Positions 3,401 to 45,587 of a stretch of 64,000 bases of DNA are shown here, in pieces. The notes under the pieces are model-generated. The model worked only from the letters and a program-made list of their open reading frames with translations. It did no database searches and was not told where the DNA came from. Source of the DNA: an uncultured Bacteroidota bacterium (GTDB lineage Bacteria > Bacteroidota > Bacteroidia > Flavobacteriales_F > PHOS-HE28); NCBI GenBank assembly GCA_902826215.1, contig CADEDY010000001.1, positions 62,001-126,000 of the forward strand, in the 5' to 3' direction. The number at the start of each line of letters is the position of its first letter. Positions within the stretch are counted from its first letter, which is position 1. The translations under genes were made by a program, and so were the position numbers.

Positions 3401-6400
3401 GCTCATCAGCACAGCACTCTTACAAGGACGAGTGCTGATGGAAGTGGAGCGTGAAGGACGGATCGCTGTGAGGAAGCCCTTCATTCTCAGCAAGGGTCAG
3501 CAGCGCATTGAACTCTCCGTCATGGAGGAGGACCGCGGGGGCTTCGCCGTGCACTTCCTCTGCGTTGAGCGGGGTCTTGCCCACACCGTCACACAATGGA
3601 TCGATGTGCCATGGAGCAACAAGGACCTCCATGTGGAGTGGATGAGCTTCCGGGATAAGCTCTTACCGGGATCCAAGGAGGAATGGCGGTTGAAGATCAG
3701 CGGGCCGAAGAAAGAGAGAGTGACGGCGCAGTTACTCGGCGTGATGTACGATGCCTCCCTCGATCATTTCGTGATGAATGATTGGCCGATGTTCCAATGG
3801 CCCCGCGGATACGCGAGCATGGGTTGGCAACGGAATGCACCGTTCGGGTCGGTCCAGGGCAGAGTATTGCGCAATAGCGAACCACCCATCGAGGTGTTCC
3901 GGGATTATCCATGCTTGATGTCATATGGCGTTGCAGGATACGTAGGTGGTCGACGATTCCGAACGGTGGCGTGTCCGACATTCGGTGGTGTTGAAGAATA
4001 TTCTCCTATCCGAGGGAATATCAATGCCCGTGCTAGCATCGATGCGGACGAAGGTGCGATAGCATTGAATTTCAGTATCGCAGAAGACAATATCGAAAGG
4101 CCTGAGCCGGTATTGGCGGGTGGCTTGGGAACTGGCCCTCAACCCGTCCGTTCCGACTTCCGCGAAACCGCCTTCTTCTTCCCGGACCTGCGCACCGATA
4201 TCGACGGCAACGTCGTGCTTCGCTTCACCACCCCCGATGCCTTGACGCGTTGGAAGGTCATGGGTCTAGCACACACCAAGGACCTCCAGCTCGCGCAATT
4301 CACCAAGGAAGCCACGACGAGCAAGCCCTTGATGGTGGTGCCGAACCTGCCGCGCTTCCTCCGTGAAGGCGATCGGATCACGCTCACAGCGAAGATCAAC
4401 GTATTGGAAGGGGAAGCCGTCACGGGTGTTGCCCGGATCGCGCTCTTCGATCCCACCACCAACACGGATGTGACGCGGAGTTTCACCACGCGTGAAACAA
4501 CGAAGCCCTTCACCGCAGGTCCTGGTCAAAGTGCGAATGCTGAATGGACCATCAATGTGCCTGTCGGCATCAACCTAGCGAGCGTGCGCATCACGGCCAA
4601 CGCAGCCGGTCTCGGCGATGGCGAAGAGCGACCACTTCCTATCCTGACCGACAAGATACTGGTCACGGAGAGCCTGCCCATTGCGATAACCAAAGCGGGC
4701 ACCAAGACCTTCACGTTGGACAAGCTGAAGAATACTATGAGCACCACCTTGCGGAGCGAGCGCTTGCAGTTCGAGTACACGCCGAACCCGGCGTGGTATG
4801 CAGTTCAAGCGTTGCCATGCCTCATGGAATTCCCGCACGAATGCGCGGAGCAGACCTTCAGCCGGTACTACGCGAACCGCCTAGCAACACACATCGTGGA
4901 ACAGCGACCCGCTGTGAAGAAGGTATTCGAACAGTGGAGTGCTGCATCACCGGGGAATGAGGGCGCTTTCCTTTCTGCATTGGAAAAGAACGCCGACCTG
5001 AAAAGCACATTACTGGAAGAAACACCGTGGGTGGTGAACGCGAAGGACGAAGCAGAAAGCAAGCGTCGCATTGCGCTTTTCTTCGATCTACAACGCATGG
5101 CCAGCGAAGAAGCGATCGCGATGAAGAAGTTGCGCGATATGCAGTTGCCTGAAGGCGCGTGGCCCTGGTGGAGCGGCATGCGCCCATCGCGTTACATCAC
5201 ACAGCACATCGTTGCCGGTTTTGGTCACCTCGAAGCGTTGAAGGCAGGCGATACGCGTCCCGATGGTCCAACAGAACAGATGCTGCGCAGCGCGGTGCGC
5301 TGGTTGGATGCGGAGATGGAGAAGGACTACAAAGAGCTGGTGCGTACCTCATCGAAGGAGTCGCTTGCGCAGTACGTTCCCAACGCCACGGACATCCATT
5401 TCCTGTACGCACGATCCTACTTCCAGCGCTGGCCGATCGATGGTGCAACACGCACGGCCGTTGACTTCTACATGCACCGTGCAAAAGAGACCTGGCTCGG
5501 CAGCGGCCTTCAACAACAAGGCATGTTGGCGCTGGCTTTCGACCGTCTCGACGACCGCAATAGGGCGCAGCTCATTCTGAAGTCGCTGATCGAACGTGCT
5601 ACACGAAGCGAAGAATTGGGCATGTACTGGAAAGGCTTCAACAACGGCTTTGAGTGGTGGAGCTTTCCGACGGAGACACATGCCCTGATGATCGAAGCCT
5701 TCCAAGAAGTGGGGCACGACGATGCCAGCGTGAACGCCTTGAAGCAATATCTCTTGAAGTTGAAACAGACCACTGATTGGAAGACGACCAAGGCCACGTC
5801 GGAAGCGTGTTATGCGTTACTGCTAACCGGCGAAGATTGGTTGGAACCGAGGGCTGACCCGGTGATCACTGTTGGGGGTGAGCGTGTGGTCGCGGACAAG
5901 CAGGAGGCGGGCACGGGTTACTTCACCCGGACGTGGACCGGTTCCGAAGTGAAGTCTCCGATGGGCGAGGTGAAAGTGACCACCGCGAGCGATGGGGTGC
6001 AGTGGGGAGCACTGCATTGGCAGTACCTCGAACGCATGGACAAGGTCACCCCGCATGAGAGTCCGTTCAGCATCACGAAGCAAGTGATGTTGCACGCGCA
6101 GACCGAGGCGGGTGCGCAGTTGATCACCTTGGACAAAGCGCGAACGTTGAAGGCCGGCGACAAGCTCACCATTCGGATCGAATTGCGCACGGACAGGTAC
6201 GTGGACTATGTGCACATGAAGGACCTGCGTGCGGCGGGGCTGGAGCCGGTGGAAGCCATCAGCGGGTACAAGTGGCAGGACGGTTTAGGCTACTACCAGA
6301 GCATTCGCGATGCAGGTATGCACTTCTTCTTCGACCGCATCGAACCGGGCACCTATGTGTTCGAGTACGACCTGCGCGTGACGCATGCTGGTGACTTCAG

Positions 6401-37544: not shown

Positions 37545-37671
37545 TGAGCGATTTGTGACAATTAGGTCTGGGCTTCGGCTGCTGTAGAAGTATGGTATTC
37601 GTCCGAAGGTTCTCAGCCAAGGCTTGTTCGGAGAATTTGACCGGTCATGGCGGAAATGCGCCACCTTTTCA

Positions 37672-37679
37672 CAACTTTG
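37672..37679 (+). promoter_or_regulatory. -7 promoter box CAACTTTG of the AIPR gene
   Basis: CAACTTTG keeps the A and TTTG of TAnnTTTG and ends 6 nt before the ATG at 37686, the same geometry as for rpoN, the HAD gene and the S9 peptidase gene. Confidence 0.4.
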
Positions 37680-37685
37680 GATACC

Positions 37686-39458
37686 ATGCGCATCACAGAA
37701 GAACAGATCAAAGCCGCCCATAAGGCGCTCAAGAACGAGAACGGTGGAGCCTGGCAGGACTATTTCGGCCTGCTTTTTCTGGAAGAGTTCCACAAGGTCC
37801 CTCGCGAACAAGCGGTGCATCAGGTAGCCTTCGGCGGCGAGGACTATGGCATCGATGGCTATCACTTCGATAAGGCCAAGCGCAACCTCTATCTGTTCCA
37901 GTTCAAGTGGAGCAACGATCACGAGCACTTCAAGCCCGGCTTCCGAACGTTGTTGGAACATGGCATGAGCGAAGTGTTCGGTGCCGGTGCCGACAGCAAG
38001 AGCCGCAACGCTGTCGTGAACGGGTTGAAGCAAGTGCTGCGTGAGAACCACAACAAGATCGATCAGGTCAACTTCCATTTCGTCTTCACCGGTGAGCCGG
38101 ACAAGGCCGAGAACAGCAGCGTCTTGGCAGCCATGCGCGAAGACCTCGAGAACAAGAAGCACCTCTTGGATACCTGGTGGGGCCGCGACATGAGCATGGT
38201 GATCGAGTACCGATCACTATCGGGCAAGCGCGCGCATGTTGTGGTGAACAAGACGCATGAGTATCCACTGAAACTCTCGGATTCCTTGGAGAAGAACGGT
38301 CCCGATGGACAACAGATGCACATCGGCATGGGCCGGTTGTACGATCTGTACAGCATGTTCCGCCACATGGGATCGCGGTTCTTCGAGCGCAACATCCGCC
38401 ACAGTTTGCCAGAGGATGGATCGGTGAACCGGGTGTTGGAGCGTGCGTTCCGGGACATCGGCATCGACAAGAAATTGGAACCTGCGATGTTCGCCTTCAA
38501 CCACAACGGCGTCACCTTCAGCGCCCAGCGGATCGAGCAGGACGGAAGCGGCTATCGCATCACGGAGCCACGCTTGTTGAACGGAGCGCAAACGATCACT
38601 ACGTTGGCGCGGTTCATCGAAAAGAACAAGCACCGAGACGACATTGAGACGATCAAGGATCGGTTGAAACGGATCGAAGTGATCTGCAAAGTGATCACCG
38701 ATGCGGAAGATGGTTTCATCACCACGGTCACCATCAACAACAACCGCCAGAACCCGGTTGATTCGTGGAACCTGCGAGCGAACGATCAGATCCAGTTGGA
38801 ACTGAGCGATCACTTCCGCGGCAAGCTCGGCATCTACTATGAGCGCCAACAGAAAGCTTTCGAGGGGCTGACGGAAGAAGAGCGCGAAGAGCAGGGCATC
38901 ACCGACGACAAGGCGATCCAAATGCTCAAATTGGCTCAGACCTTCTTGGCCTCTGAGGGCGAACTGGTGGTCATGCGTTCCATGCGCAAGGCATTCGAAG
39001 AGGACAAGCAATACGAGCACATCTTCAACATGCGCCGCTTGGATGTGGATCCACGGTACGTTGTGCTGTGCTACAAAGTGCAGTTCCGTTTGCCTTTGCT
39101 TACCCGGTCGATCTTGGAGCGTGGGGAGAACAAGTACAGTTTCGTTGGTCGAGGTCGCCATTTGCTGTGGGCGCTCATGTGCCAAGCCATCCTGAACGAC
39201 AAGGACCTGCAGAAAATGTCGGAACGCTACGGTCAGGACCTTTCGATCAGCGCCAACTACATGCAGTATATCAGCAGTTTGGCCACCGGACCGTGCCGCA
39301 CCTTGCTTTCGGAGTTGGTCGAATTGGCCGTCAATGCCGAAGCGGTGAAGAACGGCGAGTTCAACTTCCTGCGCAGCAAGCAGTCGTTCGATTATTGCAT
39401 GGAAGTGGCCAAGCAACGATTCGGTTGGGAGAAGCGCAAGCTTTCCGGTTCGTGGTAG
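37686..39458 (+). CDS. AIPR-family protein with nuclease-like N-terminus (possible phage defence)
   Basis: This encodes a 590-residue cytoplasmic protein. The region from about residue 220 carries the AIPR (abortive infection phage resistance) family motifs in order: FFERNIRHSL with RNIR at 235-238, FAFNHNGVTF near 271-277, LLNGAQTI at 299-304 and INNNRQNPVDSW at 350-360. The first 80 residues have GGEDYGIDGYHFD, with Asp57, and LYLFQFKWS, with Gln72-x-Lys74, a D...QxK pattern of PD-(D/E)XK nuclease folds as in Mrr-like enzymes. A nuclease role is inferred. AIPR proteins are linked to phage resistance, but the exact mechanism here is unknown. The gene is alone between a symporter and an MscS gene, with no methylase or other defence gene. 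ATG 37686 was chosen for the promoter box just upstream; 37647 is an alternative. Confidence 0.8.
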   Translation: MRITEEQIKAAHKALKNENGGAWQDYFGLLFLEEFHKVPREQAVHQVAFGGEDYGIDGYHFDKAKRNLYLFQFKWSNDHEHFKPGFRTLLEHGMSEVFGAGADSKSRNAVVNGLKQVLRENHNKIDQVNFHFVFTGEPDKAENSSVLAAMREDLENKKHLLDTWWGRDMSMVIEYRSLSGKRAHVVVNKTHEYPLKLSDSLEKNGPDGQQMHIGMGRLYDLYSMFRHMGSRFFERNIRHSLPEDGSVNRVLERAFRDIGIDKKLEPAMFAFNHNGVTFSAQRIEQDGSGYRITEPRLLNGAQTITTLARFIEKNKHRDDIETIKDRLKRIEVICKVITDAEDGFITTVTINNNRQNPVDSWNLRANDQIQLELSDHFRGKLGIYYERQQKAFEGLTEEEREEQGITDDKAIQMLKLAQTFLASEGELVVMRSMRKAFEEDKQYEHIFNMRRLDVDPRYVVLCYKVQFRLPLLTRSILERGENKYSFVGRGRHLLWALMCQAILNDKDLQKMSERYGQDLSISANYMQYISSLATGPCRTLLSELVELAVNAEAVKNGEFNFLRSKQSFDYCMEVAKQRFGWEKRKLSGSW

Positions 39459-39616: not shown

Positions 39617-40510
39617 ATGAAGTTGAGCGAGAGCATTCATCTGATCGAGGCGAAACTCCTGCATTGGCTCAAGGCGCTGGTGCAGATGCTGCCCAACTTG
39701 ATGTTAGCTGCATTGATCGTCGTCGCTGCATGGTTGGCCGCACGAATTGCGCGCTACTGGACGAAACGTCTAGTTGAAAAGGTCACGGATAGCCAAACGC
39801 TTCGGAGACTTATCGGTAACACCACCTATCTCTTCGTGCTCCTTGTTGGCCTCTTCGGCGCCCTCAGTGTTCTGCATCTCGATAAGACCGTCACATCGAT
39901 CCTGGCCGGTGCCGGTATCATCGGCCTAGCGCTCGGCTTCGCTTTCCAGGATATCGCAGCCAATTTCATCAGCGGCGTCATCATGGCGACCCAACGGCCC
40001 ATCCGGGTTGGCGAATTGATCGCTACCGGAGATCAGGTCGGCGTGGTCGAGCGTATCGATCTTCGCACCACGGAACTGATGGATCTGCAAGGCATCCAGG
40101 TCATCATACCCAACAAGGACATCTTCCAATCGGTGTTGAAGAACTACACACGGCATGGAATACGTCGTGTGGATGTCGGTGTGGGGGTGAGCTACGGCGA
40201 TGACCTGGAAAAGGCGGAACGGGTCACACTGGATGCGGTTCGTGGCCTTTCCGACCTGGTTCCTGGCCACGAGGTCGAACTGTACTATCAAGGCTTTGGC
40301 GACAGTAGCATCGACCTGGAAGTGCGTTTCTGGATCGTCGCATCGACCAATGCGCATTACAACGACATGCGGAGTCGAGCGGTCAAAGCCATCAAAGCGG
40401 CGTACGATCGTGAAGGCATCACCATCCCATTCCCGATCCGCACATTGGACTTCGGGATCAAGGGCGGGGAGAAGTTGAACGCTATGTTGAGCGAGCGGCC
40501 AACGAACTGA
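39617..40510 (+). CDS. MscS-family small-conductance mechanosensitive channel
   Basis: This encodes a 297-residue protein with three TM segments. The pore helix is SILAGAGIIGLALGFAFQDI followed by AANFISGVIMATQRPIRVGE, the usual MscS TM3 and beta-domain start. The C-terminal alpha/beta part ends in IPFPIRTLDF, a family hallmark. It opens on membrane tension to release solutes during osmotic downshift. Length and order match E. coli MscS (286 aa). Confidence 0.95.
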   Translation: MKLSESIHLIEAKLLHWLKALVQMLPNLMLAALIVVAAWLAARIARYWTKRLVEKVTDSQTLRRLIGNTTYLFVLLVGLFGALSVLHLDKTVTSILAGAGIIGLALGFAFQDIAANFISGVIMATQRPIRVGELIATGDQVGVVERIDLRTTELMDLQGIQVIIPNKDIFQSVLKNYTRHGIRRVDVGVGVSYGDDLEKAERVTLDAVRGLSDLVPGHEVELYYQGFGDSSIDLEVRFWIVASTNAHYNDMRSRAVKAIKAAYDREGITIPFPIRTLDFGIKGGEKLNAMLSERPTN

Positions 40511-40525
40511 CGCACCTTCCAACTC

Positions 40526-42531
40526 ATGTCGTGTTCCATAGGTCGTATTGATAAGGCTCTTTGGATGACCGTGTTGCCATCCATTCGCAATGTCCTCAGG
40601 ACGGTCGCTGCATTCGGCGCCTTTGCCATTCTGGCCCTGTGCCAAGCTCAGGACGTCAGCTTGGTGCCTGATCTTCGCGCGGGAGCTGAGCGCGGCGACC
40701 GACGACACTGCTCGCTCCGAAGTCCTTTCGCGGATCTGTTTCAACTTCATCCATAGCGATCCGGACAGTGCGCGCCGGTATGGAACCCGAGCACTTGCTT
40801 TGGTACATCGCATCGGCCACCCAAAGGCACTCGGCGACGCGCACAAAACTTGGGCTGGCTCGATGCGCAGTACGGAAGATCCGACAGCGCCGAAGCACAA
40901 CTGAACAAGGCACTGGCTCAATTCCAACGCATCGGAAACCCGGCCTAGATCGCTGTAACGCTCTCCAATCTCGGTTTGCTGGCCAACAAACGCGGCGACC
41001 AAGTGGGCGCGGTGAAGAACTTCCAAGCCTCCCTCACGCAGAGCGAATTGGTGAATGACACGGCGGGTATGGCCGTGGCCTTCTATTCCATCGGCAGCAC
41101 GTACCGGAAGATGAAGGAGTTCGATCGCGGTATGGAGTATTTGCATCGCTCCCTTGCGATGGAGCGCGCGCTCGGTCGCACGACCAAAGAGGCGAACTGC
41201 CCGCGATCGATCGCCAATGTGTATGCTGAACTGGGAGATAGGCTACGTGCGATGAAGGGTTACGAAGAAGCCTACGGGATCTTCGTGGAACACCATGATG
41301 ACATCGGTGCGGGCATCGTGCAAGAGAACATCGGCGACCTCCTCAGCGATACATCTCCCAAGGAGGCCTTGATCCATTATCAACTCGCGTTCGCCCTGTA
41401 CGATTCCGCAAGAAGCGATCTGGACAAGGCCTATGTGCTCCGACGCTTGGGCCGCGCGCACATCACGCTTGGTGACCTGAAGGAAGCCAAGGCCGATGTG
41501 GAGAGCGACCGGGTGTTGGCCGTCCCCAGTAGGGCTCAGGAGCTAGTGATGGATTATGAACTCGCCTTGGCCGAATTGGCCCGTGCTGAGGGGGACGGCA
41601 AAGTCACGTTCGCTCATTACGAGCGCTATGTCGTGATGAAGGACAGCCATCAAGGTGCGGAAACACAAACCGAGCTTGATCGCTTGCGTACGGAGTTCGA
41701 GACTGAGCGGAAAGAAAGGACAATGCGTTGTTGCGCGCCGAGAATGACGAAAGGCGCATGAACGAAGAGCGCCTCCGGAACCGATGGGTCGCTGCTGCTG
41801 CCCTGGTGGTGCTGTTGGGGCTGCTCTACCGCAACTTCCGGTTGCGCGGTCAACATGCGCGTGACATGGGTAGTATCAATGCCGAATTGGAATGCCAGCG
41901 CGATCGCGTACAACGGATGAATGACCTGTTGGAATTGAAGGTGCTGCGCGCGCAGCTCAACCCGCACTTCATTCACAACTGCCAGAACAGCGCCATCGCC
42001 TTGGTGAAGGAGGGACGTGATCAGGAGACGCTTGCCTTTCTACAATGCGTCTCCGAGCTGATGCGGTCGGTGTTGGAGCATTCCGTTAAGGACCGCATCA
42101 CACTGGAAACGGAGATCGATTTCCTTCGCCAATACCTCGCCTTGGAAGCGTTGCGGCTGAAGGATCTGCACTTCACTGTGGAAGCTGATGAGGAGTTGTA
42201 GAACGATGAAGTGCTTCTCCCTGCCTTGCTTGTGAAGCCTTTCGTAGAGAACGCCATCTGGCATGGCCTGGCCGCCAAGGAAGGCGACCGCATCGTCGAT
42301 GTGCGGTTCCGATCCACCGAAAGCGGCCTGCGTTGCACGGTGACCGATAATGGCATTGGGCGACAGGGTGCCACGAGCAGAGCGAACGGCGAACATTCCT
42401 ACGCCACGGAACTCACACAGGAGCGGTTGCTTTTGCTTACACCTCGCATGCAGCAGAAGGGCATCATCGTTGATCGGTATGAACGTGGTGCACCGAGCGG
42501 AACGGAGGTGGTGATCGAACTGGCGATCTGA
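40526..42531 (+). pseudogene. TPR sensor histidine kinase (LytS/YpdA type), decayed
   Basis: The pieces add up to one sensor: a signal peptide (ATG 40565, frame 2), TPR repeats (LSAATDDTARSEVLSRICFN in frame 0 from about 40690; LGWLDAQYGRSDSAEAQLNK then IAVTLSNLGLLANKRGDQVG in frame 2), a TM segment (WVAAAALVVLLGLLYRNF, frame 1), the His_kinase domain (LRAQLNPHFIHNCQNSAIAL) and a HATPase (LLVKPFVENAIWHGL). At least three frameshifts (near 40680, 40848 and 41715) and two in-frame TAG codons (40946-40948; 42199-42201) break it. In intact relatives the phospho-acceptor motif reads NPHFLFN; here it is NPHFIHN. The next gene is a LytTR regulator that has also lost its key Asp. Sequencing error could explain single events but hardly five. 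Confidence 0.82.
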
Positions 42532-42553
42532 TCACGTTCTCGAACTTGCGCAC

Positions 42554-43291
42554 ATGATGCGCACCCTGTTGGTGGACGATGACGATGCCACACGGCGTTA
42601 CCTGCGCGTGTTACTGAAAGAAGCCCGCGCTGACATAGAAGTGGTTGGCGAAGCGGCGAACATAAGAGAAGCGGAACGGGCGATCATGACCCACAAGCCG
42701 GACCTCGTGTTCCTGGGTGTGGAGATGCCCGGTGGAACAGGCTTCGATCTCCTGCGCAACTTGAAGCGATGGGATTTCGCAGTGATCTTCACCACTGGTC
42801 ACCAGCATTACGCCACACAGGCCATCCGGTTCAGTGCGCTGGACTTTGTGCCCAAACCCGTGCTGCCGGAAGAGCTCGCATCGGCCATGGAGCGGTTGCA
42901 CGAACAGCGGCCAACACCACCGGCGGCACAGGTGCAAGAGCAGTTCATCGCCAACATCACACAACCCGACGGCAGCAGGTTCAAGCTCACCATTCCGCAC
43001 GGTGAGCGCACCTTCTTCGTAGCACCCGCGGAGGTCGTTCGCTGCGAAGCGGAACGCAACTACACATGGGTGCATCTTGGCGAGGACAGGCGCTACCTGT
43101 TGTCGCGCACACTGAAGGAATTCGAGGAATTGCTGGAGCCCTTCGGCTTCGTGCGCCTCAACCGTGGCGATCTGGTACGCAAGCAGGAGATTGCGCACAT
43201 GGAAGGCGGCAACGCGGTATTGCGCACTGGTCACCGCATCGAAGTGAGTAGTCGCCGACTAGCCGAGCTGAAGCAGTTATTGGCTTCCTGA
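42554..43291 (+). CDS. LytTR-type response regulator lacking the phospho-acceptor Asp
   Basis: This encodes a 245-residue protein with an N-terminal receiver (MRTLLVDDDDATRRYLRVLL) and a C-terminal LytTR DNA-binding domain (FFVAPAEVVRCEAERNYTWV ... YLLSRTLKEFEELLEPFGFV). In the receiver the acidic triad and the Thr/Lys positions (FTTG; VPKP) are kept, but the phospho-acceptor site reads LVFLGVEMPGG: residue 55 is Gly (GGT at 42716-42718) where the family has Asp (GAT or GAC). One base change would explain this. It cannot be phosphorylated in the usual way and may be constitutive or inactive. It follows the decayed kinase by 22 bp and was presumably its partner. Confidence 0.85.
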   Translation: MMRTLLVDDDDATRRYLRVLLKEARADIEVVGEAANIREAERAIMTHKPDLVFLGVEMPGGTGFDLLRNLKRWDFAVIFTTGHQHYATQAIRFSALDFVPKPVLPEELASAMERLHEQRPTPPAAQVQEQFIANITQPDGSRFKLTIPHGERTFFVAPAEVVRCEAERNYTWVHLGEDRRYLLSRTLKEFEELLEPFGFVRLNRGDLVRKQEIAHMEGGNAVLRTGHRIEVSSRRLAELKQLLAS

Positions 43292-43385
43292 GCGCCACTC
43301 GGTAGGTCCTTCGACCGCTGGATAGGAACACCTTTACAGGGGTCCGCAAGGGGCGCACTTTCGCTGCATCGATACACCGTACATC

Positions 43386-45176
43386 ATGACCACCGCACGC
43401 CCATTCCCAGCCCACTTGGCCCGCCATTCGCGCCACGCCCGTTTCTGGAACACGCTGATCTGGACCAGCATCTCGGTCGGACTGGCGCTGCTGTTGTTCC
43501 TTGCTTCATCCTTCTCGAGCCTAGCACAATGGCCTACGGATCCGGCCAACCCCTTGGTGATCTGCAACGCCCCGAGCTACCAGAAGAGCCTGCGTATCGC
43601 AAGCGATGGTGAAGGAGGCTGGATCGTGCTGTAGACAGATGACCGCTTAGGGGCGAACAACTAGGCTGTATACGGGCAACGGTTGGACGCAGGAGGAAAC
43701 CTGCTTTGGGAGCCCAATGGTCGTTTGATCCAGGCAATCCACGGGCGAAGCATCAACTACGTTGGTTCGGCGCGCCGGAATGATGACAGCATTTTCCTCG
43801 CCTACACCAGTGGTGCGGACCAGTTCGGTGCAGACACCCAGCGTGCGATGGCCTTCGACGGAGACGGCCAAGCGGTGTGGGCCCAGCCTACGTTGTTGGC
43901 ACAGCCAGAACCATTGCCGGGCGGCGGAACGGCCGGTGGTCACTTCTATCCACGGGTGGCAACAGTGCTCAACGGCATTTTCGTGGGCTGGGGAACGAAC
44001 CTGCTCGGTGGGGCGGATTACGTACACGAGGCTCGGGTCCTCAACGATGGCGCCAACCTGATGCCGGTGCAAGGCGTGGAGATCCCCAGCATGAACAACT
44101 CGATCGTCACCGGCCCTTGGACCATGCGACATGATCGGAATGGTGGTCTGATGCTGGAAGAACGATGGGGCAATGGAGCCGGAGCACCCTTGTTCACCAT
44201 GCATGTGGATAGCTTGGGCAGTGAACTGTGGCCCGAGTTGCTTCAAGTGACCGCCAACAGTGGCGGGCTCTTCTACGAGTGGAGCACCGCCATGGCACCG
44301 AACACGCGCATGAATTCCGTTTGGGCCAATGGTTACGACCTGAGCATGGCGATCTACGATACGTCTGGTGTACTCCTCAATACGACCGCAACGATCAACG
44401 TGTGCATGCAGGTCGATGTGCAAGAGAATCCCTTCGTGGTGCTGGCCGAGGAGGAGACCAGCGTGTTCTGGGCGGACAACCGTGCATCAGCGGGTAACGG
44501 TAGGCAGGTCTTCATGCAACGGTTCGATGTGAACGGCGCGCCGCTCCTCGCGGAGAATGGCGTGCGGGCCATGCAGGTCAATGGCAACCTCAACGGCTTT
44601 CCACGTGCGTTGGTAATGGAGGACGGTACACACATCGTTACCCTGTATTCCACTGCGGAGCTGCTGGGCGGAACACCCGGCTTCCGTGCAGGCCGCGTGA
44701 CCAATACGGGTGCGAACCTGTGGAGCGACACCACGCGTTTCTGCACACCGGAGCTCGGGCCGAATGGTGGTACGGACTACGGCATCGTACTTGATGATCA
44801 TGATGGTGTGGTGGCCGTCTGGTTCAACTACCAGAACGATGCGCTCTACGCGGCGCGCATCGAAAGCAGCGGAGCACTCGGTGGCAACAACTCAACGTCC
44901 ATTGCGCGATCTGGAAGTTCATAAGGTTTCCACATCTATCCGAACCCTATGAATGAACGGATCATGTTGAAGGTCGAGCACCCGTGGATAGGCCATGCGG
45001 CTACGGTGGATGTGCTGGATGCAATGGGCAGGGAGGTCTTCCATCAGCGCATCGGGGCGATGAGCGCCGTTGAGACCATCTTCCTATTGCCGGAGTGGAA
45101 GGATGGTATGTACCTGTTGAAACTCTATGCGGAAGGCCAGGTTCCGAAGATCACGCGCGTGATCGTGCGGCGCTGA
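43386..45176 (+). pseudogene. T9SS-secreted beta-propeller-like protein gene with three in-frame stops
   Basis: One frame of 597 codons runs without any indel: an N-terminal membrane or signal segment (TSISVGLALLLFLASSFS), repeats with a V-F-W-A-D-N-R ... Q-R-F-D-V-N-G pattern, and a type A T9SS tail (FHIYPNPMNERIMLKVEHP ... DGMYLLKLYAEGQ) ending at 45176. It is interrupted by TAG at 43632-43634, TAG at 43662-43664 and TAA at 44922-44924. By alignment to the repeat near 44468, the first TAG stands where Trp occurs in the other copy. Either the gene is dying by point mutations or several reads carry errors. It follows the defective LytTR regulator and may have been its target. The stop abuts the RidA gene on the other strand. 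Confidence 0.78.
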
Positions 45177-45587
45177 TCAAACTGTAGCCACCACCTTCAA
45201 CTCGATCGCGATCGGCGTGGGCAGGCAGTTGATCTCCAGCGTTGTCCGGCATGGAGGATTGTTCTCGAAGTGCTCCTTCCAAAGCCGGTTGTACGTGGCG
45301 AAGTCATCCTTCATGTTGGTGAGGAATACCGTCACATCTACGATCTTTTCCCACGAGGAACCGGAATCTTCAAGGATCCACTTCACATTCTGGAATACAC
45401 TACGCACTTGCGTTTCAATATCGTAGGAAAGGATGGAGCCATCCGTATCGAGTTCAACACCAGGGATCTTCTTCGTGCCACGTTCTCGCGGTCCCACGCC
45501 GCTGAGGAACAAAAGGTCGCCAACGCGACGTGCATGCGGGTAATGGCCAACGGGTTCGGGTGCCTTATTGCTGGAAATGGAGCTCAT
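45177..45587 (-). CDS. RidA-family protein (2-aminomuconate deaminase-like)
   Basis: This encodes a 136-residue protein. PVGHYPHARRVGDLLFLSGV, then IETQVRSVFQNVKWILEDSG and CRTTLEINCLPTPIAIELKV match the RidA/YjgF family; the Arg in CRTTLEI is the conserved substrate-binding residue. The spacing GPRERGTKKIPG-V in the N-terminal half is close to the 2-aminomuconate deaminase branch of the family, used in tryptophan/kynurenine breakdown, while other members hydrolyse reactive enamines. No other kynurenine genes are nearby. It is likely a cytoplasmic trimer. Confidence 0.88.
   Translation of the reverse strand: MSSISSNKAPEPVGHYPHARRVGDLLFLSGVGPRERGTKKIPGVELDTDGSILSYDIETQVRSVFQNVKWILEDSGSSWEKIVDVTVFLTNMKDDFATYNRLWKEHFENNPPCRTTLEINCLPTPIAIELKVVATV

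What the first reader, a model, noticed from the sequence alone, without database searches (positions are those of the whole stretch)
42716..42718. Phospho-acceptor Asp replaced by Gly in an otherwise complete LytTR regulator
The receiver has the normal acidic cluster (VDDDDA), FTTG and VPKP, but LVFLGVEMPGG carries Gly (GGT) at position 55 where Asp is invariant. A single A-to-G change explains it. With a broken kinase next door, the regulator either became phosphorylation-independent or is on its way out; its LytTR part is complete and could still bind DNA.
Basis: seen in the sequence. Interest (0 to 1): 0.55.

Follow-up and report, generated by a model that had tools for sequence, protein, structure and literature searches.

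The report
Aspartate-less regulator in a decaying cassette
A bacterial gene switch has lost the one residue that would receive its "on" signal, and it sits between two plainly broken genes, so it is most likely part of a small signalling unit that is decaying rather than a new kind of regulator.

Summary
Codon 55 of the LytTR response regulator (ORF 42554-43291) is GGT (Gly) at 42716-42718, where all 41 homologous loci aligned here have Asp; the two nearest orthologues (77-79% identical) have GAT.

The regulator is the middle gene of a cassette found in nine other genomes of its genus: TPR histidine kinase, LytTR regulator, secreted protein (type IX sorting tail in the two copies tested). Eighteen other compared genes (25.5 kb) have none, so scattered sequencing error does not explain the breakage.

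With kinase and presumed target both dead, ordinary decay of the whole cassette is the best reading. The regulator's open frame is weak evidence of selection: at its neighbours' lesion rate it would stay undamaged about 21% of the time. Selection tests were inconclusive. The other receiver landmarks are intact, as expected after a recent loss. A candidate LytTR operator (43298-43325) survives, so residual DNA binding is possible but not shown. The base itself could not be checked against reads. Low interest.

The parts
42554..43291 (+). LytTR response regulator, open frame of 245 aa, Asp55 replaced by Gly
   Evidence: ORF; Pfam Response_reg and LytTR; orthologues by identity, gene order and tree
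42716..42718 (+). codon 55, GGT (Gly) at the phospho-acceptor position
   Evidence: Asp in 41 of 41 other loci
40526..42531 (+). broken TPR histidine kinase: frame changes near 40683, 40851 and 41719, in-frame TAG at 40946 and 42199
   Evidence: frame-by-frame comparison with intact homologues; stop codons read; His_kinase and TPR domains
43386..45176 (+). broken gene of the secreted-protein family: one frame with TAG at 43632, TAG at 43662 and TAA at 44922
   Evidence: the intact copies L038 and L057 carry a type IX sorting tail
43298..43325 (+). candidate LytTR operator: two CTGGAT-like direct repeats starting 20 bp apart, between regulator and secreted-protein gene
   Evidence: seen by eye in 9 of 10 spacers compared, window included; pattern match; binding not tested

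Best explanation
This is a three-gene signalling cassette that decayed recently. In sister species a TPR-containing LytS-like histidine kinase would phosphorylate Asp55 of the LytTR regulator, which would then act on the adjacent secreted-protein gene through a direct-repeat operator between them (inferred from domains, gene order and motif). In the window's lineage the kinase and the secreted-protein gene have been destroyed, and the regulator, no longer under use, has lost its phospho-acceptor. It cannot be switched on by phosphorylation of Asp55. Its LytTR domain may still fold and touch DNA, but the adjacent target is dead. Shown: the Gly codon, the lesions, the intact sister copies, the gene order. 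Inferred: the pathway, operator function, order of events, and that the regulator is out of use.
For: All three cassette genes altered at once while flanks are intact: kinase and secreted-protein gene carry about 8 lesions in 3.8 kb; 18 other compared genes, 25.5 kb, carry none, and dropping the coverage filter added only kinase stretches with stops. Intact cassette in nine sister genomes (one kinase cut by a contig end). Stops stand against different residues in the relatives and frame changes occur as well, which is not one systematic error. All other receiver landmarks remain, unlike the typical pseudo-receiver (PMC12632262 section 7). Lesion-free chance for the regulator is 0.21. It departs from otherwise invariant columns at 4 places against at most 2 in any of 28 others. 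Two intact paralogous kinase-regulator pairs remain in the genome.
Against: The regulator itself has no stop or frameshift. Codon model: omega 0.150 on the window branch against 0.114, not significant. Relative-rate excess (23 against 7 with outgroup G067, p 0.005) is not specific, since the AIPR control gives 16 against 4, p 0.012. The candidate operator is kept almost unchanged. The order of events is unknown.
Confidence: 0.77

Rival explanations
1. The regulator has been kept and works without phosphorylation as an aspartate-less receiver, bound constitutively at its operator or elsewhere, after its kinase was lost.
For: Open frame over 738 bp; LytTR domain complete; no significant rise in omega; operator-like repeats retained. 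Aspartate-less receivers are known, as much as 4% of receivers (PMC4395418, passages).
Against: The adjacent target is dead; survival of the frame by chance has P about 0.21; other landmarks look like a normal receiver and not an adapted pseudo-receiver; the omega test is equally unremarkable for the dead kinase, so it has no power; no second target was identified (one search matches elsewhere were not examined).
Confidence: 0.13
2. The Gly codon is a sequencing or assembly error in an otherwise normal regulator; the neighbours are true pseudogenes or locally misassembled.
For: One base differs from the GAT of the nearest orthologues; one genome only; reads not available.
Against: Eighteen compared genes show no lesion, so the general error rate is low; a chance error exactly at this codon is unlikely in itself, whereas loss of constraint in a dying cassette would explain it.
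Confidence: 0.09
3. The in-frame TAG codons are recoded and the genes are alive.
For: Four of the five in-frame stops are TAG.
Against: The TAG codons stand against Leu, Trp and Tyr or Phe in the nearest relatives and the fifth stop is TAA; the kinase also changes frame; no other compared gene has an internal TAG.
Confidence: 0.01

Closest known systems
LytS/LytTR-type two-component systems (BtsS/BtsR, YpdA/YpdB; PMC5552118, passages seen)
   Same: LytS-like His_kinase domain next to a receiver plus LytTR regulator; NCBIfam BtsR model is the best hit though far below its cut-off (99.7 against 246 bits)
   Different: TPR sensor part, downstream secreted-protein gene; in the window the kinase is broken and Asp55 is gone
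Aspartate-less receivers / pseudo-receivers (PMC4395418 passages; PMC12632262 sections 4 and 7)
   Same: Phospho-acceptor Asp missing from a receiver that Pfam still recognises
   Different: Only this residue of the five active-site residues is lost, in one genome of the genus, beside broken neighbours; no retained function shown
Pseudogenisation of a redundant two-component cassette (general knowledge, recalled)
   Same: Sensor, regulator and presumed output altered together with intact flanks and intact sister copies
   Different: The regulator frame is still open, so it is seen at an early stage

Membership tests
LytTR response regulator | Receiver followed by LytTR DNA-binding domain | tested here: met
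   Pfam PF00072 E 3.4e-21 and PF04397 E 3.8e-16, both above the curated cut-offs
LytTR response regulator | Phosphorylatable Asp in the receiver | tested here: not met
   Gly55; Asp in 41 of 41 other loci
Aspartate-less receiver (ALR) | Receiver lacking the conserved Asp | tested here: met
   Gly55; base not checked against reads
Functional pseudo-receiver | Regulatory activity without phosphorylation | not testable with these tools
   needs DNA-binding or reporter assay
Functional pseudo-receiver | Changes at further landmarks as seen on average in pseudo-receivers (acidic pair, T, T+1, D+4, D+8, K) | tested here: not met
   D8-D9, T81, G82, P59, G63 and K101 all present (averages from PMC12632262 section 7); this is a tendency, not a definition
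Decaying (pseudogenised) cassette | Inactivating lesions in genes that are intact in relatives | tested here: met
   kinase and secreted-protein gene
Decaying (pseudogenised) cassette | Relaxed selection on the regulator itself | tested here: inconclusive
   omega not different; 23 against 7 unique changes, but AIPR control 16 against 4

The most novel reading that the evidence does not exclude
A LytTR regulator caught just after losing both its kinase and its phospho-acceptor, still holding its operator and working as a phosphorylation-independent DNA-binding protein: an early step from a phosphorylated to an aspartate-less regulator.
Probability: 0.12. Interest if true: 0.4.

Novelty: new member of a known kind. 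Interest (0 to 1): 0.15.

Why it matters
Mostly as a caution: one missing catalytic residue beside broken neighbours is a sign of decay before it is a sign of a new mechanism. The intact sister cassettes outline a conserved kinase / LytTR / secreted-protein unit with a candidate operator, which is more useful for study than this broken copy. If the Gly55 protein did still work, it would show how an aspartate-less regulator begins.

Tried and rejected
Recoding of TAG: rejected because of the TAA, the frame changes and the varied residues opposite the stops.

Scattered sequencing error for the two broken genes: rejected. Of the 24 rows I kept 18 as the control (11 in the window, 15,447 bp; 7 in L047, 10,071 bp) and dropped six: two cassette genes (42554, 43386), an antisense row (41896-42555), two paralogue rows (L044, L045), and L047 18201-18461, which lies opposite a longer open frame. 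Two kept rows were flagged with one stop each (window 28359, L047 8638); these stops lie before the first Met. The 70% coverage filter would itself hide a gene as damaged as the kinase, so it was dropped: of 24 further stretches, only the two of the kinase held stops. If lesions were independent, all 8 falling in the two genes has P about 6e-8. Of the own-genome control stretches, L046 and L048-L051 gave no row, so they say little.

Selection tests were inconclusive. Branch lengths are above 1 in the model's units in nearly all cases, so synonymous change is near saturation. The secreted-protein gene has omega 0.241 against 0.117 (2dlnL 5.0); regulator (0.53) and kinase (0.49) are not significant; the AIPR control is more elevated (2dlnL 11.35). 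Relative-rate counts lean to faster change in the window for all three genes with outgroup L041 (kinase part 22:10, regulator 23:13, secreted-protein gene 46:29), but with outgroup L038 the kinase part is 19:22 and the secreted-protein gene 46:40, and AIPR, a control, shows an excess too.

A LytTR half-site pattern recalled from memory gave one match among the ten spacers (L040) and one near the kinase start in the window; the repeat reported was found by eye. The genome pattern search gave 4 to 11 matches in each of 7 genomes against 0 or 1 for the reversed control; 6 of 7 genomes match at this locus (not G024), and the matches elsewhere were not examined, so no regulon is claimed. Structure prediction was not run: it would not separate function from decay. 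A paper search on decaying two-component systems (listing only) showed nothing on point; no claim of absence from print is made.

They were rewritten, and the control was added.

Full report
Observation. The ORF at 42554-43291 encodes a 245-aa LytTR response regulator. Codon 55, window 42716-42718, is GGT, Gly. In the receiver alignments this column is Asp in 36 of 36 other loci and 28 of 28 others, 41 distinct loci in all. These include seven paralogues of the same genome (L002-L008) and the orthologues of nine other genomes of the genus. The two nearest orthologues, in G060 (L052/L057, 79%) and G061 (L053/L038, 77-78%), have GAT. G061 contig 9 and JAEUTA010000031.1 ('Flavobacteriales bacterium isolate new MAG-317') have the same length and place the gene at the same coordinates, so I take them as one genome.

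Surroundings. In nine of nine sister genomes whose locus was fetched, the regulator is preceded by a kinase and followed by a secreted-protein gene. In the two copies tested (L038, L057) that protein ends in a type IX sorting tail. The three frames are open in eight of nine; in the ninth (L042) the kinase runs off the contig. In the window the same three genes stand between an intact MscS channel gene (39617-40510) and an intact RidA-like gene (45177-45587, minus strand; name from general knowledge, intact against L057), but two of the three are broken. The kinase (40526-42531) changes frame near 40683, 40851 and 41719 and has TAG at 40946 and 42199; ten of eleven homologous kinases examined have open frames of 599-787 aa, the eleventh being L042 at its contig end. 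The secreted-protein gene (43386-45176) stays in one frame but has TAG at 43632 and 43662 and TAA at 44922. The TAG at 42199 falls between the His_kinase domain and the ATPase-like part (the latter below its curated cut-off), so no single piece could be a working kinase.

Is it error? Sister DNA allowed 18 other genes to be compared (11 in the window, 15.4 kb; 7 in the next stretch, 10.1 kb). None has a frame change or internal stop. Without the coverage filter, 24 further stretches matched and only the two of the kinase held stops. About eight lesions in 3.8 kb and none in 25.5 kb argue against scattered sequencing error. The single base behind Gly55 could not be checked against reads.

Is the regulator kept by selection? 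At the neighbours' lesion rate 738 bp would carry about 1.6 lesions and be lesion-free about 21% of the time, so an open frame proves little. The codon model gives omega 0.150 on the window branch and 0.114 on the sisters (2dlnL 0.53); the plainly dead kinase is equally unremarkable (0.079 against 0.058), which suggests that inactivation is recent compared with the branch and that the test lacks power. The regulator departs from otherwise invariant columns at four places (alignment columns 55, 98, 99 and 194); no other of 28 sequences departs at more than two. Position 98 is the K-3 aromatic switch position (Tyr to Phe, a mild change; naming after PMC12632262 section 7). Relative-rate counts lean the same way (23:7 with outgroup G067), but the AIPR control does too (16:4).

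Mechanism. Most likely a whole signalling unit fell out of use. Kinase and output gene were destroyed, and the regulator, free of constraint, lost the residue that phosphorylation needs. Its other receiver landmarks (acidic pair D8-D9, T81, Gly82 at T+1, Pro59 at D+4, Gly63 at D+8, K101) are still there, whereas a survey of pseudo-receivers reports lower conservation at these positions (PMC12632262 section 7). Two paralogous kinase-regulator pairs with open frames remain in the genome (C8 and C37), and a 34% homologue of the secreted protein with an open frame stands on C29, so redundancy may have made the loss tolerable (inference).

What survives. Nine of the ten regulator-to-secreted-protein spacers compared, the window's included, show by eye two CTGGAT-like repeats starting 20 bp apart; the exception is L043, and in L061 the first repeat overlaps the end of the regulator gene. 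Direct repeats about two helical turns apart suit a LytTR operator (recalled). In the window it lies at 43298-43325 and differs from the G060 copy at one base between the repeats. The regulator could therefore still bind there, next to a dead gene.

Known kinds. As much as 4% of receivers lack the Asp (PMC4395418, passages), and about 6% of a representative bacterial set are pseudo-receivers (PMC12632262 section 4). Loss of signalling units by pseudogenisation is ordinary (recalled). This is a new instance, not a new kind, and interest is low.

Noticed in passing
window 43298-43325; spacers in L038, L057, L040, L041, L042, L059, L060, L061: Conserved CTGGAT-like direct repeats, 20 bp apart, between the LytTR regulator and the secreted-protein gene: a candidate operator for an undescribed sister-species cassette.
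   Followed up: partly
window 39617-40510; L057 4066-7965; L038 4084-4187: The junction between the AIPR-like gene and the kinase is a variable slot: MscS in the window, about 3.9 kb of other DNA in G060, only about 0.1 kb in G061.
   Followed up: no
window 37647-39458 against 40526-45176: G060 and G061 are 97% identical in the AIPR-like gene (queries; 97.3%) but only 62-82% in the three cassette genes, so the cassette evolves fast or has been exchanged.
   Followed up: no
L043, about 3655-4470: In G029 the regulator-to-secreted-protein spacer is about 0.8 kb long and holds a near-perfect inverted repeat just after the regulator.
   Followed up: no
L040 6034-9387: G024 has two secreted-protein genes of this family in tandem behind the regulator.
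   Followed up: no
G000:C37, 279-12110: Four places in large open frames of 1250-1276 aa match the C-terminal tail of the secreted protein, near another kinase-LytTR pair.
   Followed up: no
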